Positions 10,656 to 24,405 of a stretch of DNA of 64,000 bases are shown piece by piece (the first letter of the stretch is position 1; every line of letters begins with the position of its first letter). The position numbers and the translations under genes were made by a program. Source of the DNA: Neobacillus sp. DY30 (GTDB taxonomy: Bacteria; Bacillota; Bacilli; Bacillales; Cytobacillaceae); assembly GCF_030123065.1 (NCBI RefSeq), contig NZ_CP126093.1, forward strand, positions 934,001-998,000, given 5' to 3'. Below the pieces are notes generated by a model that had not been told where the DNA came from, ran no database searches, and saw only the letters and a list, made by a program, of their open reading frames with translations.

Positions 10656-11762
10656 CTAGTAGCCGCTTTTTTCCATTTTAGCGTTCGATATTTTCTTACG
10701 AATAAGTACCAGAATCAATAGCAGACCAGGAAGGTACAGATACATTATTAGTCCAGGCTGCCCAAGATACGTTGTTGAAAACCAATGTTCTGATGTGCTC
10801 TTGGACATTGTCAATCCTAAAAATAAGACAACAGCTCCAATAGGAAAAACGAGTGACCTGCTGTCACGAAGGGACAACAATAGCTGTATTCCCCGAATGG
10901 CTCCATACATTTGGATTGTCACTTTAAAAAAGGCGGTTCCCATAAAGTACAAAATTCCCAATGCATCTAGGTTTTCGAGAAAGTCCGCAACAGAGATGAC
11001 TTTGACTAATCGGTATAAGGGGTACCTGCTCGTTGAAAAAGTGCCTTCGCCAAAGACAAGAATCGCCAGTGCATCGAAGCTGGAAAGGAGAATTCCATAT
11101 ACAATGGAGGCTAAAAGAGTCGCTTTAATTATCCTTTTTGAAGGTGCACATAATGTCCAGATCATTGCAAACTCTAGGGTCTCCCCAAATGATTGTTGGA
11201 TACCTGCCGGCCATACAGCTTTCCAAATACGCCCCCATCCTTCCCCCAAAACCGGCTGCAATCGCCCGATATCGGTTATATCAGAGGAATATATTAAGAT
11301 GATCTCAATCAAAAACAACACTAAAATGACAGGTAATATTATTTCTGCTAGCCGGGCTAGAACCTCAATTCCACTAAACAATGCATAGGTGATGGCAATC
11401 ATAAATATGCCAAGTATGACCCAATTAGGTGTACCCGGTAAAATGGTCGTTGGGATGAGATCCTTTATATCCCCCAGTGTACGACCCGCGTTATATAAAA
11501 AATGAAGGCAATAAAACCAAGAAATTGGGGTTCCCAGCCAAAATCCAAATTGGGTAGGAAACCATTCAACTAGGGTTAATCCCGGCTGCAGACGCATTAA
11601 GATCAGATACATTAAGATAAGACATGTCCCGATTCCGGTAGATAGCAAGGTAGACAGCCAAGCATCTCTTCCGGCTGCAGAGGCAAATCCAAATATCACC
11701 GAAGTGCCAATCTGAAACAATAGGGTAAGCATAAATAATTGACCGGAGGATATTCTCTCCAT
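10656..11762 (-). CDS. Spore germination permease, GerAB/GerKB family
   Basis: 368 residues with about ten membrane helices and the amino-acid-permease-like profile of the germinant receptor B subunit: ISSGQLFMLTLLFQIGTSVIF at the N-terminus, the FSGIEVLARLAEIILP block, and a basic tail RKKISNAK. The B subunit forms the germinant-binding membrane part of the GerA-type receptor in the inner spore membrane. A strong AGGAGGTGG site precedes the ATG. It is transcribed away from the A and C subunit genes that begin 120 bases away, whereas these genes are usually co-transcribed in the order A-B-C or A-C-B. Confidence 0.94.
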   Translation of the reverse strand: MERISSGQLFMLTLLFQIGTSVIFGFASAAGRDAWLSTLLSTGIGTCLILMYLILMRLQPGLTLVEWFPTQFGFWLGTPISWFYCLHFLYNAGRTLGDIKDLIPTTILPGTPNWVILGIFMIAITYALFSGIEVLARLAEIILPVILVLFLIEIILIYSSDITDIGRLQPVLGEGWGRIWKAVWPAGIQQSFGETLEFAMIWTLCAPSKRIIKATLLASIVYGILLSSFDALAILVFGEGTFSTSRYPLYRLVKVISVADFLENLDALGILYFMGTAFFKVTIQMYGAIRGIQLLLSLRDSRSLVFPIGAVVLFLGLTMSKSTSEHWFSTTYLGQPGLIMYLYLPGLLLILVLIRKKISNAKMEKSGY

Positions 11763-11882
11763 GGTTTCGCCACCTCCTATCCCAACTTTTGTTATTCAAC
11801 AGTTATTAACGTAAACAAAATTTAGTAATTTATTTAATAAATGGTTAAAATAAGAAAAATTTTTAGGGAAAGGGGGATAGAG

Positions 11883-13484
11883 ATGCGGCTATTGCGATGG
11901 TTAGAAAAGAAAATCTTAAAATCGAATCAAAATGGTGATCATCGTTTATTCAACAAGGCGGGGAATTTACATTCTAACCAACTTAAAGGTCAATTTCACG
12001 ATGAAATAAAGCAGTTGAAAATGATTTTTGAACGATCTTCCGATATTGTGTTCCGTGAATTTCAGCTAGGCGGGATACAAAAAGGAGGGCTTATTTTTTT
12101 AGATGGCATGGTGGATAGCCAGATTATTGATTCTGACGTGGTGAAACCCTTATTGGATTTTGGGAAGAGGGCGTCTCTTTCTGCAACAATACCTCTAAAA
12201 GAAATGGAAGCTTTTCTTCGGGATCAAGTTATCTATGTATCACAGGTGAGTATAGGACAGACAATGAAGGAAGTCGTGGATCATATTTTGAATGGGGGAA
12301 CGGTTTTATTATTGGAGGGAGTAAAACAATCCCTATTTATTAGCGCCCCAGCATGGCAGATGAGATCTGTTGAAGAACCTTCGACGGAAGCGGTGATCCG
12401 TGGTTCTAGAGAAGGATTTACAGAGAACCTTAGAACCAATACCAGTTTGATTCGCAGGAGATTAAAAACCCCTCAGCTTAAAATGGAAGAGATGACGGTC
12501 GGACGGTTATCTAATACGAAAATCGCTATAACATATCTCGAGGGAATTGCAGAGCAAGCTCTTGTTGCAGAGGTAAAGGAAAGGATAGGGCAAATTGACA
12601 TTGATGCAATTTTAGAAAGTAATTATATTGAAGAACTCATTCAGGACAACCCCTATTCAGTTTTCCCCCAAGTGAACAATACCGAACGACCGGATAAAGT
12701 AGCTGCTTATTTATTGGAAGGGAAAATTGGGATTCTGGTTGATAATACGCCCTTTGCTCTCCTTGTACCTGTTTCGTTTTATGAAATGCTCCAATCGAGT
12801 GAGGATTACTATCAGCATTTTATGGTTTCGACCGTCATCCGATGGCTTCGCTTTTTTATGTTGGCAGGCGCCTTGTTATTGCCCTCTCTTTATATTGCAA
12901 TAACTGCCTATCATCAAGAAATGCTTCCAACTACTCTTTTACTAAGTGTCTCTTCCGGGAGGGAAACCGTTCCCTTCCCAGCCTTTGTCGAAGCCTTAAT
13001 TATGGAAATATCCTTTGAGGGCTTGCGGGAAGCTGGTGTTCGTCTGCCGCGGCCCGTTGGACAGGCCGTGAGTATTGTTGGAGCTCTTGTGATTGGGCAG
13101 GCGGCCGTGCAAGCCGGAATTGTATCTGCATCGATGGTCATTATTGTTTCGATTACCGGTATATCTTCCTTTATTTTTCCTGCCTTCAGTCAAGGGATTG
13201 CCATTCGTTTACTTCGATTTCCCATGATGATCTGTGCAGCGACATTGGGTTTGTATGGCATCTTAGTGGCAACGTTGATTCTTTTGACCCATATGGCACG
13301 GCTTCGCTCTTTCGGTGTCCCTTATTTGTCACCAGTGGCACCTTTGAATTTAACTAGTCTGAAAGATATTTATGTTCGTACACCATGGTGGGGAATGATT
13401 AATCGTTCCGATCAAACTGGGAAAAAGAATCAAGAACGGATGAATCATTTCATGCGTCCACGGCCGCCCCGTCGAAGGAACTAG
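11883..13484 (+). CDS. Spore germination protein, GerAA/GerKA family
   Basis: About 533 residues. A soluble N-terminal half (LKMIFERSSDIVFREFQLGG; ILESNYIEELIQDNPYSVFPQ; ERPDKVAAYLLEGKIGILVDN) is followed by five or so membrane segments with the conserved FEGLREAGVRLPRPVGQAVSIVG loop and a Pro/Arg-rich tail. These match the A subunit of germinant receptors, a ligand-responsive channel in spores. ATG 11883 is chosen because AAAGGGGG stands before it; the first ATG at 11841 lacks a ribosome-binding site. Forms an operon with the C subunit gene 27 bases downstream. Expected to be made in the forespore under sigma-G, but no clear sigma-G promoter could be recognised. Confidence 0.94.
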   Translation: MRLLRWLEKKILKSNQNGDHRLFNKAGNLHSNQLKGQFHDEIKQLKMIFERSSDIVFREFQLGGIQKGGLIFLDGMVDSQIIDSDVVKPLLDFGKRASLSATIPLKEMEAFLRDQVIYVSQVSIGQTMKEVVDHILNGGTVLLLEGVKQSLFISAPAWQMRSVEEPSTEAVIRGSREGFTENLRTNTSLIRRRLKTPQLKMEEMTVGRLSNTKIAITYLEGIAEQALVAEVKERIGQIDIDAILESNYIEELIQDNPYSVFPQVNNTERPDKVAAYLLEGKIGILVDNTPFALLVPVSFYEMLQSSEDYYQHFMVSTVIRWLRFFMLAGALLLPSLYIAITAYHQEMLPTTLLLSVSSGRETVPFPAFVEALIMEISFEGLREAGVRLPRPVGQAVSIVGALVIGQAAVQAGIVSASMVIIVSITGISSFIFPAFSQGIAIRLLRFPMMICAATLGLYGILVATLILLTHMARLRSFGVPYLSPVAPLNLTSLKDIYVRTPWWGMINRSDQTGKKNQERMNHFMRPRPPRRRN

Positions 13485-13511
13485 AAGAGTCTTGGTTTGG
13501 AGGAGAACGCA

Positions 13512-14684
13512 ATGAGAAAACGAGGAGTCCTGATCATCAACTGCATCTTAATAGTCTTACTGACTGGCTGTTGGAGCAGAATAGAGGTCAATGATCTTTC
13601 AATCGTAATGGCTACAGCCATCGATAAGATGAATAATGGAAAATTCCGTGTCTCGGTTCAGGTAGCGATTCCAAAGCAGCTTGGACCTGTTGGTGCCGGA
13701 GGTACTGGATCCGGAGATGGAACTACCGTTCTTATTTCAGAGACAGGAGAATCAGTGATGGACGCTATTCAGAGACTTCAAGTAAAATTACCTCGTCGTA
13801 TTTTCTTTTCCCATTCCCGGAATCTAATCATTGGGGAAAGGGCAGCCAGGGATGGTATTTTTCAGACTCTAGATTTCATTTCGAGAGTAAGGGAAGCACG
13901 GTTGCGTAGTTTTATATTGTTTACAAAGGGAGAAGCAGCACCTCTTTTGAAACTGACTCCTTCCATGGAGAGATACACTTCAGAAACTATTAGGGAAGAG
14001 CAGAAAATGGGAGCGGGAGTTCGGATCAGAATTAAGGATTTTATCGATATGCTTACAACTGAAGGGATTTCCCCTCTTGGTGCTCAAGTTGCCATTATGC
14101 CTGAAGAAAAGGGCGGGGAAAATTCCAAGCAGACTCCCGCTATCGTTGGAACGGCAGTTTTTAATGAGGATAAATTGGCAGGATGGATGAATGATCAGGA
14201 TACATTGGGGGTGCTATGGATTCGTAATGAAATAGAAAAAGCTAACATCACGGTGACGGTACCAAAGGAAAAGGGAGGGGGAAAAATCGGTGTTCAGCTT
14301 ATGAAAGGACAGTCAAAGGTGAAACCGATTCTTGAGAAGCGTAAGGTAAAGATGAACGTGAGTATTAATGCGGAAGTTGAACTCTTTGAAAATGGCTCGA
14401 AATTAGATTTAGGCAACCCGAAAGAGTTGCACTATGTTCAAACACTGCTGGAAAAGGATGTAAAGGAAAAATGCCGATTAGCTCTCGATAAGGGGCAAAA
14501 CCAGCTACATTCCGATATATTTGGGTTTGGTAATGCTCTTTACCGCACCTATCCGAAAGCATGGAAAGAACAGTATAAAAAACAGTGGATGGAGGAATTC
14601 CCCGAGCTCGAGGTGAGTATACATCCCCATGTTTCCATCGTCCGTACAGGGCTTACCATTAAGTCTCCAGAAATGAAAGATTAA
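13512..14684 (+). CDS. Germinant receptor lipoprotein, Ger(x)C family
   Basis: 390 residues with a lipoprotein signal (LLTGCWS, lipid Cys20) and the family pattern WSRIEVNDLSIVMATAIDK, QRLQVKLPRRIFFSHSRNLIIGE, TAVFNEDKLAGWM, and the C-terminal DKGQNQLHSDIFGFGNALYRTYPKAW. GGAGGAGAACGC before ATG 13512 fixes the start; the ORF opens five codons earlier. The C subunit is lipid-anchored to the inner spore membrane and is needed for receptor function. It completes the receptor with the genes at 11883 and 10656. Confidence 0.94.
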   Translation: MRKRGVLIINCILIVLLTGCWSRIEVNDLSIVMATAIDKMNNGKFRVSVQVAIPKQLGPVGAGGTGSGDGTTVLISETGESVMDAIQRLQVKLPRRIFFSHSRNLIIGERAARDGIFQTLDFISRVREARLRSFILFTKGEAAPLLKLTPSMERYTSETIREEQKMGAGVRIRIKDFIDMLTTEGISPLGAQVAIMPEEKGGENSKQTPAIVGTAVFNEDKLAGWMNDQDTLGVLWIRNEIEKANITVTVPKEKGGGKIGVQLMKGQSKVKPILEKRKVKMNVSINAEVELFENGSKLDLGNPKELHYVQTLLEKDVKEKCRLALDKGQNQLHSDIFGFGNALYRTYPKAWKEQYKKQWMEEFPELEVSIHPHVSIVRTGLTIKSPEMKD

Positions 14685-14818: not shown

Positions 14819-14847
14819 TTGATAGATATAATCAAATGAACTAGAAT
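14819..14847 (+). promoter_or_regulatory. Sigma-A-type promoter of the LamG-GH32 gene
   Basis: TTGATA (14819-14824) and TAGAAT (14842-14847) with a 17-base spacer, ending 23 bases before the RNA antiterminator sequence. The rest of the gap from 14731 shows nothing recognised. Confidence 0.6.
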
Positions 14848-14870: not shown

Positions 14871-14962
14871 GGATTGTGACTGGTTAGCAGGCAAGACCTA
14901 AAATGAGTTAAGGACAGAATGTACCTTTGTGTATAAGTCCTTACCATTTTAGGTCTTTTTTA
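14871..14962 (+). promoter_or_regulatory. SacT/SacY/LicT-type RNA antiterminator (RAT) overlapping a terminator, copy 1
   Basis: GGATTGTGACTG at 14871, then GCAGGCAAGACC at 14888, match the RAT motif bound by BglG/SacY-family proteins. The right end of the RAT (from 14893) is also the left arm of a long terminator: AAGACCTAAAATG pairs with CATTTTAGGTCTT (14945-14957), an inner TTAAGGAC/GTCCTTA extends it, and a T run follows. The two structures exclude each other, so antiterminator binding would permit reading into the GH32 gene 55 bases downstream. The cognate protein is probably that of 23495-24355. Confidence 0.9.
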
Positions 14963-15017
14963 TTTGCTATTTAACACAGCCTAACGTTTAAATCATATTA
15001 AATAAGGAGTTTTTCAG

Positions 15018-17417
15018 ATGAAAAAGAATAAGAGTATATTGATGGGGTTACTTGTTTTAACATTATGCTTCATTACGATTATAGAAGTTTTAATAGAAAA
15101 GCAAGAGAAATCTAGATTAGAAATAACTAATAAAAATCAAAAGAATGACCAATCCCTAGACCTGGTGCTTAGCGGCAATGATTCTCTCCATCAATGGGGA
15201 TTTGACGAAGGGGCTGGAAAAGTCACACGTGATTGTGGTCAATCCAAGTTGTCTGCTATTCATTATGGATTAAAATCAGATCCTGAATGGAAAAACGGCA
15301 TTAGCGGGAAAGCATTATTATTTGATGGGTATTCAAATTGGCTAGAAATAGCTCCAGAAGAGGTAAATAAACCAGCTGAATCTTTTTCGATTGAAGCATG
15401 GGTTGCACCGAGAGCCTATGAATGGGGAGACAATGGACAAACCTCGGTTATTATCAATCAACACGATAAAGGAAATAAACAAGGATTTATTGTGGGGATG
15501 GGGCGGCATGGATATATAACGTTTCAGCTTGCCCTAAACGGTGAATGGCATGAAATTTGGTCGCCGGAAGGGAAAATTTTACCGAAAGATAAATGGTCTT
15601 ATGTTGTTGCCCAATTTGAAAAAGAAACAAATAAAATCTCACTATATTTAAACGGTGAACTAATAATGGAAAAAGAAGTGCCGAATCATAGTGAGTTTAC
15701 ACCAGCGGCTCATCTGCCGTTACTAGTTGGCAAACACAATCAGGCAGCCGCTGTGTCTGATGTATTCCAAGTTAATATGTTTAATGGGTTAATGGACAAT
15801 GTTTCATTGTACAGTAAAGCATTTAGCAATGAATCTATTAAACAGCACTATGAGGAGGTCATTAACAAATGGAACAATAAACTGCCGATACCAGATACTT
15901 CATTTGATCGAACCGTTTATAAAGGAGACCGCTATCGCCCTAATTATCATTTTACTGCTCCACAGCATTGGATGAATGAACCACATGCACCTATTTACTA
16001 TAACGGAAAATACCATTTATTTTATCAATTTAATCCAGCTGGTCCTTTTTGGCATCAGATTCACTGGGGACATGCTGTAAGTAACGACATGATTCATTGG
16101 GAAGATAGTCCCGTTGCACTAAGTCCAACAGAGGGAACAGCCGCCAGGGATGGCGTGTGGTCTGGAAGTGCAACATATGACGAAAATGGGGTACCAGTGT
16201 TATTTTACACAGCAGGACACGATGAAATGAAGCCGAATCAAATGACGGGTATGGCGCACGCAGCAGATTCAAAGGATGTCAACTTAAATCACTGGAACAT
16301 GAATCCAAACCCTGTAACCATTCAAGCGGAAAATATCGATACACCAAAAGGAAAGGTGATGTTTGGACAATTTCGCGATCCTTATGTATGGAAAGATGGA
16401 GACAACTGGTATCAGCTTGTTGGATCAGGAGTGGAAAAGGCTGGTGGAACAGCTTTACTCTATAGTTCCAAAGATCTAGAAAACTGGAAGTATGAAAAGC
16501 CGCTTATGATTGGTGATAAAGTAAAATACCCGCGTACAGGAGATGTATGGGAACTTCCATTTTTAGTACCGATTAAAAACAAGGAGACAGGTGAACAAAA
16601 ATATGTATTTATGATCAGTCCTTATTTTAAGTCCCCCAGTCCAGATGCTGCCCGCTTTACGTTTTATTGGATTGGGACATGGGACCCAGAACGGCTGGAG
16701 TTTATCCCTGATCATGAGGATCCTAAAATGTTTGATTATGGTGAACATTTTACAGGAGCACAAGGTTTTATAGACAAGAATGGCCGTACCATTGTAACAA
16801 GTATTTTACAAGACAGGCGTTCGGAAAAAGAAAAATATCACTCAGGGTGGGCACATGGAGCTGGCCTGCCGCTTGAAATCTATTTAAATAATAATCAAGA
16901 TCTTGGTATTCGTCCGATTGATGAGGTCCAATTACTTCGAAGAGAAGAACTAATATCCATTGAAAATGTTTCAATGGATGAAGCAAATAAACAGCTTGAA
17001 AAAATCCAAAGTGACCAAATAGAAATCGAGCTAGAATTAGATGTTTCACATTTGAAAGAGGCGGGTTTGAAACTATTAAAAGATCCAAATAATCAGGAAG
17101 AAACGATTATTTTTTATAATCATGATAGTAAAACCATTCAGATTGACCGCAGTCGATCTAGTAAAAATCCCGATATTGAAAAGGGAATCCAAGGCGGAGA
17201 GCTGAACGTTGAAAACAATACATTAAGGATAAAACTATTTATTGATAAATCCATTGTTGAAGCATATGTCAATAATGAAAAAAGCATTTCTTCCCGCGTA
17301 TTTCCAACGCTCGATCAATCAAAAGGACTCGAAGTTTATGGGATTGATGGGGATCCGTTTGTACGCTTGATGAGAGTATGGAATTTAGGTACAGCCATTA
17401 AAGGAGAGGAAGATTAA
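15018..17417 (+). CDS. Membrane-anchored or secreted GH32 fructan hydrolase with N-terminal LamG-like domain
   Basis: 799 residues. A short basic start and hydrophobic segment (8-25) with no clear cleavage site suggest a signal anchor. Residues about 55-275 form a LamG/concanavalin-like domain (LHQWGFDEGAG; SFSIEAWVAP; LNGELIMEKEV), probably for polysaccharide binding. The GH32 catalytic part starts near 305: YHFTAPQHWMNEPHAP, FRDP (452-455), and acid/base Glu512 in DVWELP; a C-terminal beta-sandwich with SIVEAYVN follows. The position of the usual nucleophile Asp (WMNDPNG) is Glu321. Expected substrates are levan, inulin or sucrose-type fructans. Expression should depend on the RAT switch upstream. 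The levansucrase-like genes follow, so it may recycle or remodel their product. Confidence 0.88.
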   Translation: MKKNKSILMGLLVLTLCFITIIEVLIEKQEKSRLEITNKNQKNDQSLDLVLSGNDSLHQWGFDEGAGKVTRDCGQSKLSAIHYGLKSDPEWKNGISGKALLFDGYSNWLEIAPEEVNKPAESFSIEAWVAPRAYEWGDNGQTSVIINQHDKGNKQGFIVGMGRHGYITFQLALNGEWHEIWSPEGKILPKDKWSYVVAQFEKETNKISLYLNGELIMEKEVPNHSEFTPAAHLPLLVGKHNQAAAVSDVFQVNMFNGLMDNVSLYSKAFSNESIKQHYEEVINKWNNKLPIPDTSFDRTVYKGDRYRPNYHFTAPQHWMNEPHAPIYYNGKYHLFYQFNPAGPFWHQIHWGHAVSNDMIHWEDSPVALSPTEGTAARDGVWSGSATYDENGVPVLFYTAGHDEMKPNQMTGMAHAADSKDVNLNHWNMNPNPVTIQAENIDTPKGKVMFGQFRDPYVWKDGDNWYQLVGSGVEKAGGTALLYSSKDLENWKYEKPLMIGDKVKYPRTGDVWELPFLVPIKNKETGEQKYVFMISPYFKSPSPDAARFTFYWIGTWDPERLEFIPDHEDPKMFDYGEHFTGAQGFIDKNGRTIVTSILQDRRSEKEKYHSGWAHGAGLPLEIYLNNNQDLGIRPIDEVQLLRREELISIENVSMDEANKQLEKIQSDQIEIELELDVSHLKEAGLKLLKDPNNQEETIIFYNHDSKTIQIDRSRSSKNPDIEKGIQGGELNVENNTLRIKLFIDKSIVEAYVNNEKSISSRVFPTLDQSKGLEVYGIDGDPFVRLMRVWNLGTAIKGEED

Positions 17418-17501
17418 CCTATTGGTTTAAACTCTCTTAAATTTGTTTTTTATGAAAATTTAACTATAAATTCCTTTTGGAATTAAGGGTATATTATCCT
17501 A

Positions 17502-17530
17502 TTGCTATAAACTGTCCAACAGCATATACT
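17502..17530 (+). promoter_or_regulatory. Sigma-A-type promoter of the levansucrase-like genes
   Basis: TTGCTA (17502-17507) and TATACT (17525-17530), 17-base spacer, 24 bases before the second RAT. No clear terminator separates it from the GH32 gene upstream. Confidence 0.55.
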
Positions 17531-17553
17531 CTTCCGTATAAACAAAATTATGT

Positions 17554-17650
17554 GGGATTGTGACTGGACAGCAGGCAAGACCTAAAGTGTAGTAAGGGCG
17601 AAGTGTACCTTTTGGTAGACACACCCTTATACATTTTAGGTCTTTTTTTG
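17554..17650 (+). promoter_or_regulatory. SacT/SacY/LicT-type RNA antiterminator overlapping a terminator, copy 2
   Basis: GGATTGTGACTG (17555) and GCAGGCAAGACC (17571) repeat the motif at 14871 almost exactly, differing mainly in the loop. The terminator uses AAGACCTAAA with TTTAGGTCTT plus an inner AAGGG/CCCTT, then seven T. Loop sequences have drifted while both arms are kept, which supports function. It controls the first levansucrase-like gene and by read-through probably the next two. Confidence 0.9.
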
Positions 17651-17739
17651 TTGCCTAGGAAAGGAATTTGACTAGTTTGAAAAGAAGGAAAATTCTAAAC
17701 AGACATCATGACCACGCGGAAAATGGAGGATTTAAGGAA

Positions 17740-19071
17740 ATGGAAATGAAAACTCGAAACAAATCAAAATTGAAAAAGCTAGTTTTGACAGCACTCGTGG
17801 CTGCCAATTGCCTAGCCGCAGCACCTGCGTTTGCAGAGGAAATTAGTTCAGATTACACGTCAATCTGGTCACGTCAGCAAGCAGAAAAAGTAACGCCGAC
17901 AGATAAAACAACAGCACCAAAAATTGATCTTGAATTTGATCTTGTAGCACCTGATCAATGGGTATGGGATACTTGGCCGCTTCAGAATAGAGATGGTTCA
18001 CTGGCTATTGTTAATGGCTACCGCGTGGCTTTTGCATTGGTAGCACCGCGCTCCCTAGGTTGGGGTGAACGCCATACGGAAGCAAGAATTGGTATGTTCT
18101 ACTCTAAAAACGGCAAAGATTGGACTTACGCAGGAATCCCTTATGACTATGATAAAGCCTTAGGTTATATGCAATGGGCTGGTACATCTATGATAGATGA
18201 GAATGGAAAAGTGCATTTATTCTATACGGCAACTGGTGATAGAGATAATTGGGATTACAATGGCTGGGATAAAAGAGCCGTACAGCGTCTTGCTAAAACT
18301 ACCTTTGACATCAGTGCCGATAAAAACGGTGTCCATCTGACGAATGAAGGGAAACATCAAATCATTCTTGAAGCAGACGGCAAACACTATGAAACAATCG
18401 AACAAGCAAATAGTCCTATCATTACGGCATTCCGAGATCCATTCTTCTTACAGGATCCGAACACTGGAAAAGAGTATATTATCTTCGAAGGACAAGCTGG
18501 AAGCAACAGAGATTTTATCAAACCCGAAAATATCGGTGATGAAGAATACCGCAAAACCCACTCAGTTCCTGCTGGAGCCGAATTGTATAACGGTAATATC
18601 GGAATCGCAGAAGTACTTGATAAGGATGTAACAAAATTAAAGCTTCTGCCTCCATTGCTTGAGTCAGTGGGAACAAACCACCAGATGGAACGTCCGCATG
18701 TTGTCGTAAATGGAGATGATTATTATCTATTTACCATCAGCCATACATTTACTTATGCTCCAGGCTTAACTGGTCCTGATGGTGTCTATGGTTTTGTTGG
18801 TAAAGGGCTGTTCGGTGACTATAAACCAATGAACGAAAGTGGTCTTGTAATTGCAAATCCTAAGGAAAACCCATATCAAGCCTATTCTTGGATGGTCCTT
18901 CCAGACCAACAGGTAATCAGCTTTATTAACGAGCCGAAGGATGAGAACGGTAATGTAAAATTTGGAGGTACCTTCGCACCAACTCTAAAAGTGAAACTGA
19001 ATGGAGATACATCTGAAATTACACATGAAGGTAAACACGGTGAAATTAAGCCATTTGGGGCAAATCGTTAA
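17740..19071 (+). CDS. GH68 levansucrase/inulosucrase-like enzyme, paralogue 1
   Basis: 443 residues with a Sec signal peptide (LVLTALVAANCLAAAPAFA, cut before EE). All three GH68 catalytic residues are visible: nucleophile Asp77 in WVWDTWPLQ, transition-state stabiliser Asp233 in FRDP, acid/base Glu317 in QMERP. It transfers fructose from sucrose to a growing fructan or to water outside the cell. The wording of several blocks (FTISHTFTYAPGLTGPD, GVYGFVGKGLFGDYKPMN) is closer to the Erwinia/Pseudomonas/Zymomonas Lsc type, as I remember those proteins, than to B. subtilis SacB. The start at 17740 follows GGAGGA; the frame opens earlier at a TTG without support. First of three tandem paralogues, behind RAT copy 2. 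Confidence 0.93.
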   Translation: MEMKTRNKSKLKKLVLTALVAANCLAAAPAFAEEISSDYTSIWSRQQAEKVTPTDKTTAPKIDLEFDLVAPDQWVWDTWPLQNRDGSLAIVNGYRVAFALVAPRSLGWGERHTEARIGMFYSKNGKDWTYAGIPYDYDKALGYMQWAGTSMIDENGKVHLFYTATGDRDNWDYNGWDKRAVQRLAKTTFDISADKNGVHLTNEGKHQIILEADGKHYETIEQANSPIITAFRDPFFLQDPNTGKEYIIFEGQAGSNRDFIKPENIGDEEYRKTHSVPAGAELYNGNIGIAEVLDKDVTKLKLLPPLLESVGTNHQMERPHVVVNGDDYYLFTISHTFTYAPGLTGPDGVYGFVGKGLFGDYKPMNESGLVIANPKENPYQAYSWMVLPDQQVISFINEPKDENGNVKFGGTFAPTLKVKLNGDTSEITHEGKHGEIKPFGANR

Positions 19072-19103
19072 TCGTTAAATTAAATAGGAAGAGGAGAAAA
19101 AGG

Positions 19104-20444
19104 ATGATCTTTAATTATAAGAAAGCTGTATCTGCAATCGTGTTAACAGCAAGTGTTGTTGCCTCGACTTTTTCTGGACTAACTGTAAAAGCAGAAAGCA
19201 CCGAGCAAACGGTAAATTGGACACGAGAACAGGTGTCAAAAATTGAACTTAATCAAGACAATACTTTACCTTATACAGATATAAGTGAGCTGGAGAAATT
19301 AGCACCAGGTTATCATATTTGGGACACATGGCCGCTGACTGATCGCGATGGAAATATCGCTAGCGTGAAAGGCTGGAAAGTGATGTTTGCACTATCCGCA
19401 CCAAATGATGTGCTGCCGGGTAAAGTACATGATATCGCAACGATCCGCTATTTTTACTCGAAAAACGGTAAAGATTGGACTCTTGGCGGGACACTTTTCC
19501 AAGAAGGAGCTTCATTAGGTTCTCGTGAGTGGGCTGGATCTGCCATGATGGATAATGGGAAAATTCATGCATTCTATACAGCAACTGGACACAGAGGTGA
19601 GGAGCGGTTGACATTTGAGCAGCGCCTTGCCATGGCAACAGGTGATATTATTGCAGATCATAATGGAGTTCATTTTGAAAACTGGGGCAAACACAAGATC
19701 ATTTTAGAGCCGGACGGCAAATATTATCAGACGAAAGAACAGGCTCATAAGGGTGAAGGCGGCGGTTATGCTTTCCGTGACCCGATGTGGTTTAAAGACC
19801 CAAAAACGAATAAGGAATATATTTTATTTGAAGGAAATTCAGGGGGGACTGTAGGCGAGCGCACATATAAACAAGAATTTGCTGGAAGTTCCGAGTATGC
19901 CAGCAAGAACCCTGTACCTGCAGGAGCCGTTCATGCGAATGCAAACATTGGTATTGCAGAGGTAGTTGATGGTGATCCTTCAAAACTTAAAATGATGCCT
20001 CCACTTTTGGAAGCAAATTATGTAAATGAAGAATTAGAACGCCCGCACATTGTTGTAAAGGATAAAAAATATTATCTATTTACTGACAGCCATATCAATA
20101 AGTATGCTGAAGGGCTGCAAGGACCTGAAGGGTTATATGGATTTGTTTCCGATACGTTGATTGGTGGTTATGAGCCGCTGAATGAAAGTGGTTTGGTTTT
20201 AGCCAATCCTCCGGAAAATCCATACCAAGCGTATTCATGGCTTGTACTTCCTAATTTAAATGTGGTCGGGTTTGCTCATTTTGGAGATTTAGGCGATATG
20301 TCAATTGGTGATGTTGGCAACCAATCACCAGAATTCCAATTTAGCCATTTTGGAGGCACATTGGCTCCAACAATCCAGCTGTCAATCAAAGGTGACACAA
20401 CAAAAATAGCAAAAGAGTTAAGCCCAGGCTGGATTAAACAATAA
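19104..20444 (+). CDS. GH68 levansucrase/inulosucrase-like enzyme, paralogue 2
   Basis: 446 residues with signal peptide (cleavage probably after TVKA). Catalytic Asp74 (HIWDTWPLTD), Asp226 (AFRDP) and Glu312 (ELERP) are intact. It follows paralogue 1 by 32 bases with a good GAGGAG site and no promoter or terminator between, so it is co-transcribed. It is closer to paralogue 3 than to paralogue 1: both share PNDVLPGK/PKDVLPGK, LGSREWAGS/LGSRQWAGS and a longer loop before the final strand (IGDVGNQSPEFQ/IHEIGEQSPEYQ). Differences in these loops may shift product size or linkage; that is inference. Confidence 0.93.
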   Translation: MIFNYKKAVSAIVLTASVVASTFSGLTVKAESTEQTVNWTREQVSKIELNQDNTLPYTDISELEKLAPGYHIWDTWPLTDRDGNIASVKGWKVMFALSAPNDVLPGKVHDIATIRYFYSKNGKDWTLGGTLFQEGASLGSREWAGSAMMDNGKIHAFYTATGHRGEERLTFEQRLAMATGDIIADHNGVHFENWGKHKIILEPDGKYYQTKEQAHKGEGGGYAFRDPMWFKDPKTNKEYILFEGNSGGTVGERTYKQEFAGSSEYASKNPVPAGAVHANANIGIAEVVDGDPSKLKMMPPLLEANYVNEELERPHIVVKDKKYYLFTDSHINKYAEGLQGPEGLYGFVSDTLIGGYEPLNESGLVLANPPENPYQAYSWLVLPNLNVVGFAHFGDLGDMSIGDVGNQSPEFQFSHFGGTLAPTIQLSIKGDTTKIAKELSPGWIKQ

Positions 20445-20465
20445 GGAAATGATTTAGAATAATGA

Positions 20466-20505
20466 GAAAGGTCAGTCAATCGTTTAAAATATTGGCTGAC
20501 CTTTC
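20466..20505 (+). other. Intercistronic hairpin between paralogues 2 and 3
   Basis: GAAAGGTCAG pairs with CTGACCTTTC (10 perfect base pairs) around a 20-base loop that can pair further (CAAT/ATTG). No T run follows, so it is more likely a processing or stabilising structure, or a weak terminator, than a strong stop. Confidence 0.6.
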
Positions 20506-20554
20506 TATGAAAAGAAGAGGACAACGTTATATAGACAAGGAAGGTATTTAGGGG

Positions 20555-21901
20555 ATGAAAAGGAACAAAATCAAAAAGAGCAAATCTATTATAGCTGCTA
20601 TTATAGGACTTTTTACTATTTTTACACCCATTGTCAGCTCAAGTGTTTTTGCTCAAGAAAATACAGATACATTCAACTGGACACGAGAAAATGTTAGTAA
20701 TCTTATGATAAATGACCATAATACAGCACCGGAAATTAATAAAGACGAGCTTGTTGAAATTTCTTCAGACTCTTATATTTGGGATACATGGCATTTGCAG
20801 GATTTAAATGGTCATCCAGCTGTTGTTAACGGCTATAAAATTATTTTCGCCTTATCCGTTCCAAAGGATGTACTTCCTGGAAAACGCCATGATACAGCTG
20901 AAATACATTATTTCTATTCAAAGGATGGAAAGAGCTGGGTGTCGGGTGGCCCAGTTTTTAAAGATGGTGAAGCATTGGGATCCAGACAATGGGCTGGCTC
21001 TTCCATTGTTACTCGAGATGGAAAGCTGCAAATCTTTTACACAGCTACAGGACAAAACAATGAAACTCAACTGAGCTATGATCAGCGGATCGCAACTGCA
21101 ACTGCAGATATTCGTACAACAAACACCAGTGTGGCATTTACGAATTGGTCGGAACATGAAATTATTCTTGAGCCAGATGGTGAATACTATCAAACAAAGG
21201 AACAAACAGGACACGAAGAATCCTCTTATGCATTCCGTGACCCGTATTTTTTCCAGGATCCGAAGACTGGGGAAGAATATCTTTTATTTGAAGCAAACTC
21301 TGCTGGAAAGCTTGAAGACCGCCCATTTAAACATGAATATATTGGGTCCGAAGAATTCCGCCGAAACCATGTCAGCCCTGAAGGTTCAAAAGCTTTTAAT
21401 GGCAGTATAGGTATCGCAAAAGCATCTGGTGAAGGGTTGGCTAAATTTAAACTGCTGCCGCCTTTATTAGAAGCAAATTATGTTAATGACGAACTTGAAC
21501 GGCCAAGTGTAATCGTAAAAGGAAACAACTATTATCTTTTTACAAAAACACATACTGAGAAATTCGCATCTGGCCTTGATGCGCCGGAAGGATTATATGG
21601 ATTTACTTCAGACTCACTCTTTGGAGGCTATAAACCGTTGAATAAAAGTGGACTAGTCATTGCAAATCCAATGGAAAATCCGTATCAGGCATATTCTTGG
21701 ATGGTTATGCCGAATGGCACTGTTATAAGTTTTGTGAATTATGTTAATGTTGACGATAAAGATATTCATGAAATTGGTGAACAATCACCAGAGTATCAAA
21801 AGGAACATTTTGGCGGAATGCTGGCACCTTCCATAAAAATATCTATCACACGTGATGAAACAAAGATTCTTCATGAGAAGAAGCAAGGTGTTTTTAAATA
21901 A
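20555..21901 (+). CDS. GH68 levansucrase/inulosucrase-like enzyme, paralogue 3
   Basis: 448 residues, signal peptide ending near SSSVFA. Catalytic Asp77 (YIWDTWHLQ), Asp229 (AFRDP) and Glu315 (ELERP) are kept, so it should be active. The Pro after the WDTW motif is His here, unlike the other two copies, close to the sucrose pocket. Separated by 110 bases from paralogue 2 and followed by a strong hairpin; it is probably the last gene of the levansucrase transcript. Three GH68 genes in a row imply either dosage or product diversity (levan, inulin, fructo-oligosaccharides). Confidence 0.92.
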   Translation: MKRNKIKKSKSIIAAIIGLFTIFTPIVSSSVFAQENTDTFNWTRENVSNLMINDHNTAPEINKDELVEISSDSYIWDTWHLQDLNGHPAVVNGYKIIFALSVPKDVLPGKRHDTAEIHYFYSKDGKSWVSGGPVFKDGEALGSRQWAGSSIVTRDGKLQIFYTATGQNNETQLSYDQRIATATADIRTTNTSVAFTNWSEHEIILEPDGEYYQTKEQTGHEESSYAFRDPYFFQDPKTGEEYLLFEANSAGKLEDRPFKHEYIGSEEFRRNHVSPEGSKAFNGSIGIAKASGEGLAKFKLLPPLLEANYVNDELERPSVIVKGNNYYLFTKTHTEKFASGLDAPEGLYGFTSDSLFGGYKPLNKSGLVIANPMENPYQAYSWMVMPNGTVISFVNYVNVDDKDIHEIGEQSPEYQKEHFGGMLAPSIKISITRDETKILHEKKQGVFK

Positions 21902-21917
21902 TCGATTAGGATACGAG

Positions 21918-21948
21918 AGTGGCGTTCAGTTAATAACTGAGCGCCACT
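21918..21948 (+). terminator. 14-bp hairpin after the third levansucrase-like gene
   Basis: AGTGGCGTTCAGTT pairs with AACTGAGCGCCACT around three bases, with one G-T pair. A T run is lacking (GTACATTGTT), so termination may be partial and the sucrose PTS gene downstream may receive read-through. Confidence 0.65.
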
Positions 21949-22039
21949 GTACATTGTTAAAGTATTTGTCATTATTTACCTGGAAATCAGGGCACAACAA
22001 TAAGCCAAAACGGACGAATTTATAAATTCAAGGTGGAGG

Positions 22040-23437
22040 ATGAATATACAAGACAAACGGAAAGAACCTCAGGATATTGCTCAAGACTTATTACCGTTAT
22101 TAGGCGGAAAAGACAATATTAAAAAGATGACCCATTGCACGACCCGATTACGTTTTGAGCTTCAAGATGAGTGCAAGGTTAATAAAGCGGCAATAGATGA
22201 AATGAATGGTGTACATGGGACCTTTTCTCGAATGGGACTTTTCCAAATTATTTTAGCTCCAGGTGTTGTCAATAAGATATACAGGGCAATTCATGAAACA
22301 AAGCCAGATCCTGTTTCTGGAACCTCCAATACTGAACCGCCAAAGGTGAGAATGAATCCTTTTATTCAATTTGCTAGGACTTTGTCTAATATTTTTGTTC
22401 CTATTATTCCTGCTATTGTTGCAAGTGGTTTATTAATGGGACTTATCGGAATGATCAAGGTGTTTCAGTGGGCACCGCAGGATAGTTCCTTAATGAAAAT
22501 GTTGGATATTTTTTCAAGTGCTGCCTTTATTATTTTGCCAATATTGATTGGTTTTAGCGCTGCTAAGGAATTTGGAGGCAATCAATTCCTGGGTGCAGTA
22601 ATAGGAGGAATTTTAACTCACCCTGCCCTCTTAAATCCTTCTGCGCTTGGATATAAAGTACCAGAATATATCGAGGTGATAGGGATTGATATACCTTTAA
22701 TCGGGTATCAGGGAACAGTAATACCGATATTAATTTCTGTTTTTATTATGAGCAGGCTTGAATTGCGCTTAAGGAAAATGGTCCCAAGTTCATTAGATTT
22801 GTTCCTTATCCCGTTTTTAATCATTATATTTATTGGTTTTATCTCCCTTTTAATTATCGGACCGATCTCATTATTTATCGGTGACATCATGACAAATACA
22901 TTTGAGTTTGTCTATAAAGCTGGAGTAATCGCCGGGTTTTTATTTGGCGGCTTATATTCTCTCATTGTGATCACGGGGTTACATCATACTTTACATGCAG
23001 TCGAAATGGAATTACTCGCAAATCCAGAGATAGGTGTGAACTTTTTATTACCGATTTGGTCAATGGCCAATATTGCTCAAGGTGGAGCGGGGCTAGCTGT
23101 ATTTTTTAAAACAAGGAACGAGAGAATAAAAAAAATTGCGATCCCTTCCGCTTTTTCAGCCTTTTTCGGTATTATTGAACCGGTTATTTTTGGGATTAAT
23201 ATAAAACTTGTTAAACCATTTATAGGTGCAGCTATAGGAGGTTCTTTTGGAGGAGCGTATGTGGTTCTTACACATGTCGTGGCAAATTCCTTTGGTTTAA
23301 CAGGAATTCCAATGATTGCTATTGTAGCGCCATTAGGGATTTCGAATTTAGCGCATTACCTTATTGGTCTCGGTATCTCTGTAATGACTGCATTCATAGC
23401 TACTTTTATTCTTTGGGGGAATGAAGAAGCCGAATAA
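22040..23437 (+). CDS. sacP: PTS sucrose-type EIIBC permease (SacP-like)
   Basis: 465 residues. The EIIB domain (1-90) has the phospho-Cys33 in MTHCTTRLRF, where most relatives have CATRLR. The EIIC domain of the glucose/sucrose class has about ten membrane segments, with GGILTHPALLNPSALG, GLHHTLHAVEMELL and FGIIEPVIFGINIKLVKPF. No EIIA domain, as in B. subtilis SacP, which borrows EIIA of the glucose system. It should import and phosphorylate sucrose. The matching sucrose-6-phosphate hydrolase (SacA) is not in this window. The GGTGGAGG ribosome-binding sequence abuts the ATG. Sits between the fructan enzymes and the antiterminator, so sucrose uptake and sensing are linked. Confidence 0.9.
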   Translation: MNIQDKRKEPQDIAQDLLPLLGGKDNIKKMTHCTTRLRFELQDECKVNKAAIDEMNGVHGTFSRMGLFQIILAPGVVNKIYRAIHETKPDPVSGTSNTEPPKVRMNPFIQFARTLSNIFVPIIPAIVASGLLMGLIGMIKVFQWAPQDSSLMKMLDIFSSAAFIILPILIGFSAAKEFGGNQFLGAVIGGILTHPALLNPSALGYKVPEYIEVIGIDIPLIGYQGTVIPILISVFIMSRLELRLRKMVPSSLDLFLIPFLIIIFIGFISLLIIGPISLFIGDIMTNTFEFVYKAGVIAGFLFGGLYSLIVITGLHHTLHAVEMELLANPEIGVNFLLPIWSMANIAQGGAGLAVFFKTRNERIKKIAIPSAFSAFFGIIEPVIFGINIKLVKPFIGAAIGGSFGGAYVVLTHVVANSFGLTGIPMIAIVAPLGISNLAHYLIGLGISVMTAFIATFILWGNEEAE

Positions 23438-23494
23438 AGTAGTCATGATTATAATCACAGCCAAATGCGAGAGCAAAGGAGGAAGGTGAAAGAT

Positions 23495-24355
23495 ATGAGA
23501 ATTAATAAAATCTTAAATAATTGTGTAGTTGTAGTGAAAGACGCAGACGGAGAAAAGATTGTGATGGGAGAAGGGATAGGATTCCAGAAAAGAAAGAATG
23601 ATCTGGTGAATCAAGATAAAATTGATAAAGTTTTTATCATGAAGGATCCAAATGAGCATAAAAAATTCGAAGAAATATTACAATTCTTACCGGAAGAGCA
23701 TATACAAGTAGCAGAAGAGATTATCACTTATGCAGAAAAGGACTTAGGTGTCATGGTAAACGAGCATATCCATGCTGCCTTTTGTGATCACTTATCATTT
23801 GCAATTGAACGATTAACAAATGGTATTTCCATTAAAAATGTACTGCTTGATCAAATTAAAATTCTTTATGTAAAAGAGTATCAAATAGGACTTTGGGCAA
23901 AGGAGTTAATAAAAGAAAAATTAGGAGTAGAAATTCCTGAAGATGAAGTAGGAAATATTGCGATGCATATGCATACTGCCAGAATGAATGCAGGCGATAT
24001 GCAGGAAACAATTGATATTACAACGACTATTCAAGAAATTACGAGAATCATTGAAAGTTGTTTAAATATAAATATTGTCGAAGATACGATGTCATATGAA
24101 CGATTAATTACCCATTTACGTTTTTCACTTAAAAGTCTATTATCAAATGAGACGAACCATGACTATGATCCAAAAATGGCTTCGATGATCAAGGAAAATT
24201 TTAAAGAAGCATTTTCCTGTGCACAAGAAGTTGGTCAATTTGTGGAAGGGAAATATCATATAAAATACCCAGATGCAGAGTTAATGTATATTTCCATGCA
24301 TATTCAAAGATTTTATAATCGAGCTAATATGCAGGAAAACAAACATGAAGGCTGA
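23495..24355 (+). CDS. SacT/SacY/LicT-family transcriptional antiterminator
   Basis: 286 residues. The N-terminal RNA-binding CAT domain (MRINKILNNCVVVVKDADGEK to about residue 55) is followed by two PTS regulation domains, with the expected regulatory His residues in NEHIHAAFCDHL and AMHMHTARMN (PRD1), LITHLRFSL and YISMHIQRF (PRD2). ATG 23495 with AAAGGAGG is preferred over the ORF start at 23465. The protein should bind the two RATs at 14871 and 17555 when sucrose is being imported and PRD phosphorylation by its EII drops, opening the GH32 and levansucrase genes. Just downstream of the sucrose EIIBC gene, like sacT near sacP in B. subtilis. Confidence 0.94.
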   Translation: MRINKILNNCVVVVKDADGEKIVMGEGIGFQKRKNDLVNQDKIDKVFIMKDPNEHKKFEEILQFLPEEHIQVAEEIITYAEKDLGVMVNEHIHAAFCDHLSFAIERLTNGISIKNVLLDQIKILYVKEYQIGLWAKELIKEKLGVEIPEDEVGNIAMHMHTARMNAGDMQETIDITTTIQEITRIIESCLNINIVEDTMSYERLITHLRFSLKSLLSNETNHDYDPKMASMIKENFKEAFSCAQEVGQFVEGKYHIKYPDAELMYISMHIQRFYNRANMQENKHEG

Positions 24356-24376
24356 TGTTCATAAGATAATATTCAA

Positions 24377-24405
24377 GGCTTTCCGACTTATTCGGAAGGC
24401 TTTTT
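24377..24405 (+). terminator. Terminator after the antiterminator gene
   Basis: GGCTTTCCGA-cttat-TCGGAAGGCT, ten pairs including G-T, followed by five T. It closes the fructan/sucrose island. Confidence 0.85.

What the first reader, a model, noticed from the sequence alone, without database searches (positions are those of the whole stretch)
14871..24355. Self-contained fructan/sucrose island with two RNA antitermination switches and its own antiterminator
Two near-identical RAT/terminator switches (14871-14962 and 17554-17650) precede a GH32 gene and a run of three GH68 genes, and the only SacT/LicT-type antiterminator in the window closes the island behind a sucrose EIIBC. Arms of both switches are kept while loops have drifted, which speaks for function. 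One sensor would thus couple sucrose uptake to both synthesis (GH68) and breakdown or remodelling (GH32) of extracellular fructan. This differs from B. subtilis, where sacB and sacPA are separate loci with separate antiterminators. No sucrose-6-phosphate hydrolase is present, so the island depends on a distant gene.
Basis: partly seen in the sequence, partly recalled or inferred. Interest (0 to 1): 0.7.

Follow-up and report, generated by a model that had tools for sequence, protein, structure and literature searches.

The report
Sugar-polymer operon carrying its own switch
In this bacterium three genes for predicted fructan-making enzymes and one gene for a predicted fructan-cutting enzyme sit behind two near-identical predicted RNA on/off switches, and the same cluster encodes a predicted sucrose sensor and an RNA-binding protein that likely flips both switches; the sensor pair and the switch resemble those of Bacillus subtilis so closely that the well-known levan system there may be built from dispersed parts of such a cluster.

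Summary
Two leaders (14871-14961, 17555-17650) each hold a Sac-type RAT overlapping an intrinsic terminator. They precede a GH32 gene and three GH68 genes; an EIIBC and a CAT-PRD-PRD antiterminator follow. Terminator arms covary over 29 leaders.

The reading is partly right. EIIBC and antiterminator group with SacX/SacY, not SacP/SacT. B. subtilis SacY already controls sacB and levB (PMC6148471), so one sensor for both is not new; the sensor inside the enzyme operon is. Sucrose catabolism is a separate LacI-linked set 0.6 Mb away, so the EIIBC is more likely sensor than main importer.

New: leader and antiterminator come and go together (19 of 19 named loci with the antiterminator have the leader; order sample 4 of 4 against 0 of 28). 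B. subtilis-type SacX and SacY nest inside the island clade (AU p about 0.04). The sacB leader of that genus shares terminator core and promoter with Bacillaceae and Brevibacillus island leaders (not Paenibacillus ones), though SacB is another GH68 lineage. Regulation is inferred; nothing was measured.

The parts
14819..14847 (+). promoter-like site 1 (TTGATA-17-TAGAAT) before leader 1
   Evidence: consensus scan, 10 of 12 matches; the number of such sites in the region (36) is not above shuffles (mean 31.5, sd 5.9), so only its place speaks for it
14871..14898 (+). RAT 1 (ribonucleic antiterminator), predicted binding site of the antiterminator
   Evidence: pattern 0 mismatches; core nearly invariant over 29 leaders
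14893..14961 (+). terminator 1, overlapping RAT 1 by AAGACC
   Evidence: fold -27.2 kcal/mol, z -7.0, T run; covariation over 29 leaders
15018..17417 (+). GH32 fructanase (predicted), 799 aa, LamG + GH32N + GH32C; Glu at the nucleophile position (WMNEPHAP)
   Evidence: Pfam; motif in 8 of 8 relatives of 64% identity or more
17502..17530 (+). promoter-like site 2 (TTGCTA-17-TATACT) before leader 2
   Evidence: consensus scan 9 of 12; like-placed AT-rich -10 elements in related islands (printed)
17555..17582 (+). RAT 2
   Evidence: pattern 0 mismatches
17577..17650 (+). terminator 2, overlapping RAT 2 by AAGACC
   Evidence: fold -36.1 kcal/mol, z -6.2
17668..19071 (+). GH68a, predicted fructansucrase; a start at 17740 is more likely than the listed TTG
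   Evidence: PF02435 1.6e-108; D/D/E aligned with SacB-type proteins
19104..20444 (+). GH68b
   Evidence: PF02435 7.8e-101
20467..20504 (+). intercistronic hairpin without a strong T run
   Evidence: fold -22.8 kcal/mol; 13 of 14 GH68b-GH68c gaps folded (window included) reach -20 or lower, L036 does not; the sequence itself is not the same in L031 and L035
20555..21901 (+). GH68c
   Evidence: PF02435 4.3e-101
21919..21947 (+). intercistronic hairpin GTGGCGTTCAG/CTGAGCGCCAC without a T run
   Evidence: fold -24.6 kcal/mol; GGCGTTCAG present in 5 of 5 close islands aligned, window included
22040..23437 (+). SacX-type EIIBC, predicted sucrose sensor
   Evidence: TIGR01996; tree; motif GIIEP where SacP/ScrA have GITEP or GVTEP
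23495..24355 (+). SacY-type CAT-PRD-PRD antiterminator
   Evidence: Pfam; tree; 58-59% identity to B. subtilis-type SacY, 46-48% to SacT of the same group
24375..24403 (+). terminator-like site at the end of the island
   Evidence: consensus scan, 12 pairs; the count of such sites is not above shuffles

Best explanation
This is a GH68 operon headed by a RAT/terminator leader and closed by a SacX-type EIIBC gene and a SacY-type antiterminator gene, and the antiterminator is predicted to bind its own leader and a near-copy before the neighbouring GH32 gene, so that sucrose would switch on the likely fructan-making enzymes, the likely fructan-cutting enzyme and the sensor pair together. Shown: the two leaders, their overlap with terminators, covariation, gene order, family membership, the trees and the co-occurrence of leader and antiterminator. 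Inferred: that the genes from GH68a to the antiterminator form one transcript; that without sucrose the EIIBC passes phosphate to PRD1 histidines and keeps the antiterminator off, so transcripts stop at the leaders; that with sucrose the EIIBC drains its phosphate, the antiterminator dimerises, holds each RAT in its hairpin, and RNA polymerase reads on. Because EIIBC and antiterminator lie behind leader 2, leak transcription would be amplified (positive autoregulation). Main sucrose catabolism is likely run by the separate scr set.
For: Two exact RATs, 0 expected, with strong overlapping terminators. Terminator pairing over 29 leaders (28 distinct): 88.2% of cells paired against 83.9% shuffled, 41 cells with change on both sides against 16.4, 0 of 500 shuffles for each. 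The three other CAT proteins of the genome lie beside other PTS genes with RAT-like leaders that differ in sequence. Leader before the GH68 genes in 19 of 19 named loci that hold the antiterminator; of the 4 named loci without it, 3 lack an intact leader and 1 (L043) has it on a contig that ends early. Order sample: 4 of 4 clusters with antiterminator have the leader, 0 of 28 without. In L046 and L047 the leader is decayed, and the best antiterminator match in their genomes is 47% and 37%. SacX/SacY grouping by tree. Histidines at the four PRD places and the EIIB cysteine are present (that these are the phosphorylation sites is recalled).
Against: Nothing was measured. RAT hairpins alone fold no better than shuffles (75 and 19 of 200 shuffles as good). 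The number of covarying pairs (9) is not above shuffles (98 of 500 reach it), and the RAT itself shows no covariation. Strong hairpins lie between GH68b and GH68c and between GH68c and EIIBC, so one transcript to the antiterminator is not certain. Loci in the co-occurrence count are related, so the Fisher p of 2.8e-5 overstates. L162 has leaders and antiterminator but no EIIBC in the 18 kb read. Six of 20 island EIIBCs, all Paenibacillus, keep GITEP. L044 keeps a RAT before its GH32 gene although its nearest antiterminator match is a 53% protein elsewhere.
Confidence: 0.82

Rival explanations
1. The leaders are real, but EIIBC and antiterminator have their own promoter behind GH68c, so there is no positive loop and expression of the sensor is independent of sucrose.
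For: Hairpin of -24.6 kcal/mol between GH68c and EIIBC and 138 nt of spacer.
Against: By eye, no promoter conserved after the hairpin in the 5 aligned islands; the hairpin has no T run; the gap EIIBC to antiterminator is short (57 nt) and without a strong hairpin.
Confidence: 0.25
2. EIIBC is the main sucrose importer and the antiterminator a SacT-type regulator of uptake.
For: The sucrose EIIBC model is passed; EIIBC identity to SacP (54-58%) is about that to SacX (56%).
Against: Trees put both proteins with SacX and SacY; antiterminator identity 58-59% to SacY against 46-48% to B. subtilis-type SacT; a separate set with a better-scoring EIIBC exists; GIIEP replaces GITEP.
Confidence: 0.12
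3. Another antiterminator of the cell (LicT, GlcT or the N-acetylglucosamine-linked one) drives the two leaders.
For: RAT cores are alike within the family; conflicting reports on SacT and SacY acting on each other's targets are summarised in PMC6148471 (passages); two genomes keep a sacB RAT with SacT and no antiterminator over 50% identical to the window's.
Against: Leader and island antiterminator co-occur; the other three proteins have RAT-like leaders of their own.
Confidence: 0.06
4. The shared sacB and island leader core reflects selection on the terminator loop, not common descent of the leader.
For: Short stretch; the loop could be functional; Paenibacillus island leaders (mean z 0.0-3.5 before the first GH68 gene) do not share the core, so descent from one ancestral leader is not visible across all islands.
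Against: 46 PTS leaders with a RAT do not share it (mean z at most 3.8 against 6.1-6.2 for sacB); similarity runs into the promoter of several islands and ends at the T run.
Confidence: 0.35

Closest known systems
sacXY with sacB-levB-yveA of Bacillus subtilis
   Same: Sac-type RAT overlapping a terminator before a GH68 gene; EIIBC then CAT-PRD-PRD antiterminator in that order; one regulator over GH68 and GH32 (PMC6148471, passages); sacB leader core and promoter alike to Bacillaceae and Brevibacillus islands.
   Different: There the sensor pair is a separate locus; here it is behind the enzymes. Three GH68 paralogs of another lineage than SacB. GH32 has its own leader and stands upstream. The sacXY leaders read here (L203, L204) have no T run right after the RAT hairpin.
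sacT-sacP-sacA catabolic operon
   Same: EIIBC, antiterminator and RAT of the same core.
   Different: Order antiterminator-RAT-EIIBC-sucrose-6-phosphate hydrolase; SacP and SacT fall outside the island clade; no hydrolase here.
NagY-RAT regulon of Enterococcus (nagY-nagE, hylA)
   Same: One antiterminator gene with an EII partner also controls a polysaccharide-degrading enzyme gene through a second RAT (PMC9981650, passages).
   Different: Other sugar, other enzyme, partner EIICBA, RAT of low likeness to the consensus.
sacC1-levB-sacC2-ls operon of Cellulosimicrobium cellulans and sacB-levB of Priestia koreensis
   Same: GH68 with GH32 in one cluster (PMC8325422 and PMC11540611, passages).
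   Different: No antiterminator is mentioned in either cluster in the passages seen; the Cellulosimicrobium paper states that no apparent SacY homolog was found.

Membership tests
BglG/SacY-type RAT-terminator leader | RAT consensus with two internal loops | tested here: met
BglG/SacY-type RAT-terminator leader | intrinsic terminator overlapping the RAT 3' side so that the folds exclude each other | tested here: met
BglG/SacY-type RAT-terminator leader | binding by a CAT protein and read-through on sugar | not testable with these tools
   needs gel shift and transcript mapping
SacXY sensor pair | EIIBC gene directly before a CAT-PRD-PRD gene | tested here: met
   same order in L203 and L204
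SacXY sensor pair | groups with SacX and SacY, apart from SacP and SacT | tested here: met
SacXY sensor pair | sensor, not needed for growth on sucrose | not testable with these tools
   hint only: separate scr set, GIIEP motif
SacXY sensor pair | expression under a RAT (autoregulation) | tested here: inconclusive
   lies behind leader 2 with no RAT of its own, but hairpins intervene
SacB (B. subtilis-type levansucrase) | GH68 of the SacB lineage | tested here: not met
   6 SacB rows split off by a long branch, 100/100; for GH68a the best PDB match is 7bj4, 288 bits, while 1oyg (recalled as B. subtilis SacB) has 94 bits
SacTPA catabolic operon | sucrose-6-phosphate hydrolase in the operon | tested here: not met
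   the hydrolase gene is elsewhere
endo-acting GH32 (endo-inulinase type) | Glu in the WMNEPNG motif | tested here: inconclusive
   WMNEPHAP and WELP here; WMNEPNG given for endo-inulinases in PMC5984348 (passage); no activity data

The most novel reading that the evidence does not exclude
The textbook sacB/sacXY system of B. subtilis is a dismantled descendant of this operon. The operon with its own SacX-SacY pair is the older arrangement; in the B. subtilis lineage the original GH68 genes were lost, sacXY was left as an orphan locus, and the promoter-RAT-terminator cassette was put in front of sacB, a levansucrase of a different lineage. The leader is thus a portable RNA switch that has headed GH68a, GH68c, GH32 and sacB genes.
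Probability: 0.42. Interest if true: 0.7.

Novelty: new variant of a known kind. Interest (0 to 1): 0.5.

Why it matters
It gives a compact operon in which an RNA switch, its likely protein and its likely sugar sensor travel with the enzymes they control, found here in Bacillaceae, Brevibacillus, Ammoniphilus and Paenibacillus. It offers a testable origin for the odd layout of the much used sucrose switch of Bacillus (sacB), and a set of natural leader and antiterminator pairs, including decayed ones, for studying how RNA-protein specificity evolves. I saw no description of an antiterminator inside a GH68 operon in the listings of seven library searches and the passages read; each listing shows at most 20 papers and the library lacks most subscription journals, so this is not proof.

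Tried and rejected
Rfam at gathering threshold gave nothing. A first genome-wide RAT pattern with a 5-nt gap missed the island RATs, whose gap is 4 nt; a gapped pattern found both plus one bgl RAT, reversed-pattern control 0. Plasmid collection: no match, megablast only. I considered a SacT/SacP reading and dropped it after the trees. The 56% antiterminator of G333 looked like a further orphan SacY, but it sits in an EIIA-antiterminator-EIIBC-kinase-hydrolase set that looks catabolic. An extension of the sacB likeness beyond the T run was tested and not found. The window's own promoter stretch is not clearly similar to sacB's (z -0.2 to 1.1). Leaders before the first GH68 gene in Paenibacillus islands do not share the core (mean z 0.0 to 3.5; the GH68c leader in L048 does, 6.3), so the sacB likeness is with Bacillaceae and Brevibacillus islands only. 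The GITEP to GI(I/V)EP change is not universal: 14 of 20 island EIIBCs have it, 6 Paenibacillus ones keep GITEP, so it is a hint only.

Rows dropped before counts: L054 and L055 (haloarchaeal) were left out of the leader and co-occurrence counts; L049 could not be searched as a whole genome; the protein trees left out EIIBC under 380 aa, antiterminators under 250 aa and, from the island loci, GH68 outside 400-520 aa; the GH68 tree used 29 rows from 11 of the 24 island loci plus 22 other rows; SacB-type loci held and scanned were 30, fewer than all SacB-type hits. The GH68 leader of L162 entered neither alignment A1 nor the core comparison, because its T run is interrupted and the script's pattern missed it; its core, printed, is unlike the others, but its stem carries a two-sided change (CCCAAAATG with CATTTTGGG). 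In one search two of four sacB leaders were identical and counted once; three of its six GH68 rows are the window or relatives; gene labels there come from short motifs, and 7 leaders stayed unlabelled (maximum mean z 1.6). The 50 background leaders were not sorted by gene.
Full report
What is in the window. RAT 1 (14871-14898) and RAT 2 (17555-17582) differ at two apical-loop positions. A 32-nt pattern finds only these two, none expected by chance. Each RAT shares AAGACC with the 5' arm of a strong terminator ending in a T run. Promoter-like sites lie just upstream, though such sites are no commoner in the region than in shuffles.

The leaders are under selection. I aligned 29 leaders from the window and related loci. 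The RAT part is nearly invariant: 6 of 9 pairs never vary, which is what a protein site would do, but it gives no covariation. The terminator varies and keeps pairing: 88.2% of cells pair against 83.9% in shuffles, and 41 cells are changed on both sides against 16.4 (0 of 500 shuffles each). The number of pairs with such changes, 9, is not above shuffles (98 of 500). All 29 fold into a RAT hairpin of the same kind, one of them (the GH32 leader of L035) with its apical stem broken by a substitution.

Which protein reads them. The genome (6.14 Mb, one contig) has four CAT proteins. One is LicT-like beside bgl-type genes, one GlcT-like before a PTS gene, one beside an N-acetylglucosamine EIICB gene and an EIIA gene. 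A RAT or RAT-like leader of another sequence lies near each; the one for the third protein I saw in the printed upstream sequence, not by the scan. The two Sac-type RATs are left for the window's antiterminator. That is elimination, not proof.

Co-occurrence. One scan of named genomes gave 25 loci, 23 from Bacillales and 2 haloarchaeal. Of the 23, 19 hold the antiterminator within 9 kb of the first GH68 gene, and 19 of 19 have a RAT with a T run before that gene. Of the other 4, L043 has the leader on a contig that ends early; L044, L046 and L047 have none. L046 and L047 carry a decayed version without the T run, and the best antiterminator match anywhere in their genomes is 47% and 37%. L044 keeps a RAT before its GH32 gene, and its genome has a 53% antiterminator beside a fructokinase-like gene, with RATs before an EIIA-like gene and that kinase gene. 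In an even draw of 397 genomes of the order, 77 have GH68. Of 32 GH68 clusters outside the SacB lineage, 4 have the antiterminator and all 4 have the leader; 28 lack it and none has the leader. Three of those 4 are the window itself and two genomes also among the named ones (L033, L034); all loci are related, so the Fisher value of 2.8e-5 is only indicative.

SacXY, not SacTP. In trees of 28 EIIBCs and 35 antiterminators the island proteins and SacX/SacY form one clade (100/99 and 98/95), with SacP and SacT outside. SacX and SacY are each sister to the main Bacillaceae island group (7 and 8 rows; 98/95 and 99/95), that is, inside the island clade; the island of Litchfieldia (L034) falls with Brevibacillus and Ammoniphilus instead. 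Holding the islands apart from SacXY costs 9.5 and 10.8 log units, AU p 0.042 and 0.040. Only two SacXY pairs were available and several antiterminator branches are long, so this is moderate support. Identity agrees for the antiterminator (58-59% to SacY, 46-48% to the B. subtilis-type SacT, though 53% to the B. taeanensis protein) and is neutral for the EIIBC (54-58% to SacX and SacP alike, 43% to the genome's own scr EIIBC).

Sensor or importer. The genome has a LacI-family regulator gene, a sucrose EIIBC (653 bits), a sucrose-6-phosphate hydrolase (609 bits, cut-off 356) and a PfkB-family kinase, best match fructokinase, in a row at about 0.32 Mb. No Sac-type RAT was found near it by the gapped pattern. 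That the LacI-type protein controls the set is inferred. The island EIIBC keeps the EIIB cysteine and the GLHH motif but reads GIIEP where SacP and ScrA read GITEP or GVTEP; 14 of 20 island EIIBCs and 2 of 2 SacX share GI(I/V)EP, and 6 Paenibacillus ones keep GITEP. In B. subtilis SacX is mainly a sensor (PMC6148471, passages). I take the same role here as likely. Nine relatives (8 Paenibacillus and L036) have a gap of about 500 nt before the antiterminator; ORFs there were read in four, three were scanned, and three of three are EIIA.

Enzymes. GH68a, b and c are old paralogs. In the tree GH68a and GH68b each form a clade across Bacillaceae, Brevibacillus and Paenibacillus, and GH68c one across Bacillaceae and one Brevibacillus; the second gene of L044 falls outside the b clade. 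SacB is apart by a long branch. All three window genes keep the D, D and E aligned with SacB (that these are the catalytic residues is recalled). For GH68a the nearest solved structure is 7bj4, which I recall as a haloarchaeal inulosucrase. Which linkages the three make cannot be told. The GH32 has Glu in the nucleophile motif (WMNEPHAP), as in 8 of 8 relatives of 64% identity or more; PMC5984348 (passage) gives WMNEPNG for endo-inulinases, so an endo mode is possible but untested.

One transcript? Gaps are 32, 110, 138 and 57 nt. Hairpins of -22.8 and -24.6 kcal/mol lie in the second and third gap and lack a strong T run; 13 of 14 second gaps folded reach -20 or lower, while the third-gap hairpin is strong in the close relatives and weaker or absent further out. 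They could tune stoichiometry or stability. By eye no conserved promoter was seen after them in the five islands aligned. Positive autoregulation is therefore likely but open.

The leader as a portable part. Of 30 SacB-type loci held, 4 have a RAT, all in the B. subtilis-type genus. Outside the part that the RAT dictates, the terminator core of those sacB leaders matches five island GH68 leaders from Bacillaceae and Brevibacillus (mean z 6.1-6.2 for three distinct leaders), more than any of 46 PTS leaders with a RAT (maximum 3.8). Paenibacillus leaders before the first GH68 gene do not share this core (mean z 0.0-3.5), although the GH68c leader of L048 does (6.3). The 45 nt upstream also match (mean z 3.2-3.6 over seven islands for four sacB loci; 50 other RAT leaders reach at most 2.4), although the window's own promoter does not (z -0.2 to 1.1); after the T run the similarity ends. 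So the promoter-RAT-terminator block is alike in front of two distant GH68 lineages, and it is alike to the same island group that the trees put next to SacXY, plus Brevibacillus. The window's GH32 leader also resembles its GH68 leader (z 4.9 and 6.1). Against a strict pairing: two of these genomes (G134, G162) keep the sacB RAT with SacT and no SacY-like match over 48%, and G305 shows no such antiterminator at E 1e-70.

Known or new. The mechanism and its parts are known. The arrangement, its spread and the implied relation to B. subtilis sacXY and sacB I did not find in print (search listings; outline and passages of PMC11540611, passages of PMC6148471, PMC9981650, PMC13287328 and PMC8325422). 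I rate it a new variant of a known kind.

Noticed in passing
G028:C1:684623-686962 (L133), G209:C4:162774-165194 (L139); also L050:9884-12655, L051:10010-12658, L135, L138: GH68 genes fused into one frame: two GH68 matches in a single open frame in G028 and G209; the others are inferred from length (852-923 aa).
   Followed up: partly
L046:9832, L047:9852: Decayed RAT/terminator before GH68a in Halalkalibacter and Alkalihalobacillus, whose genomes have no antiterminator match over 47% and 37%.
   Followed up: yes
L036:15586-16128, L045:14249-14773, L048:16979-17500, L051:14153-14698: EIIA-type gene between EIIBC and antiterminator in some islands (three of these four scanned, PF00358); the window lacks it.
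   Followed up: partly
L162:6425-13074: Island with RAT-GH32 and RAT-GH68a-GH68b-antiterminator but no EIIBC beside them; the sensor must be elsewhere or of another kind. Its GH68 leader has a compensatory stem change and an interrupted T run.
   Followed up: partly
L080 / G305: sacB-type gene keeps a RAT leader though no Sac-type antiterminator was found at E 1e-70 in that genome.
   Followed up: no
L203 / G386: B. subtilis-type genome with a sacX-sacY pair but no GH68 gene in the GH68 search.
   Followed up: no
L048:20089-20184 (minus strand): Leader before a GH68c gene in Paenibacillus phytorum whose core looks like Bacillaceae leaders (mean z 6.3) while the same locus has a Paenibacillus-type leader before GH68a (2.4): possible transfer of a leader with its gene.
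   Followed up: partly
L062:3431-8836, L031:1639-7071, L035:1709-7141: Double-GH32 protein of about 1800 aa (one WMNDPNG and one WMNEPHAP motif); in two close relatives it lies directly upstream of the island, in the window's genome at 4.41 Mb.
   Followed up: partly
window 10656-14684: Spore germination genes (GerA, GerAC) with a divergent spore permease directly upstream of the island.
   Followed up: no
window 46752-48677: PRD regulator with HTH and EIIA_2 domains, no CAT domain, so not a second antiterminator.
   Followed up: partly
G000:C1:464578-465484 and 3024798-3025046 (L065, L016): GH32 gene lying over two frames and a GH32 fragment with a stop elsewhere in the same genome; the genome is rich in GH32 genes.
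   Followed up: no
L039:12781-14106, L048:18650-19997: GH68c broken into two open frames in two relatives, in L048 on the other strand with its own RAT leader.
   Followed up: no
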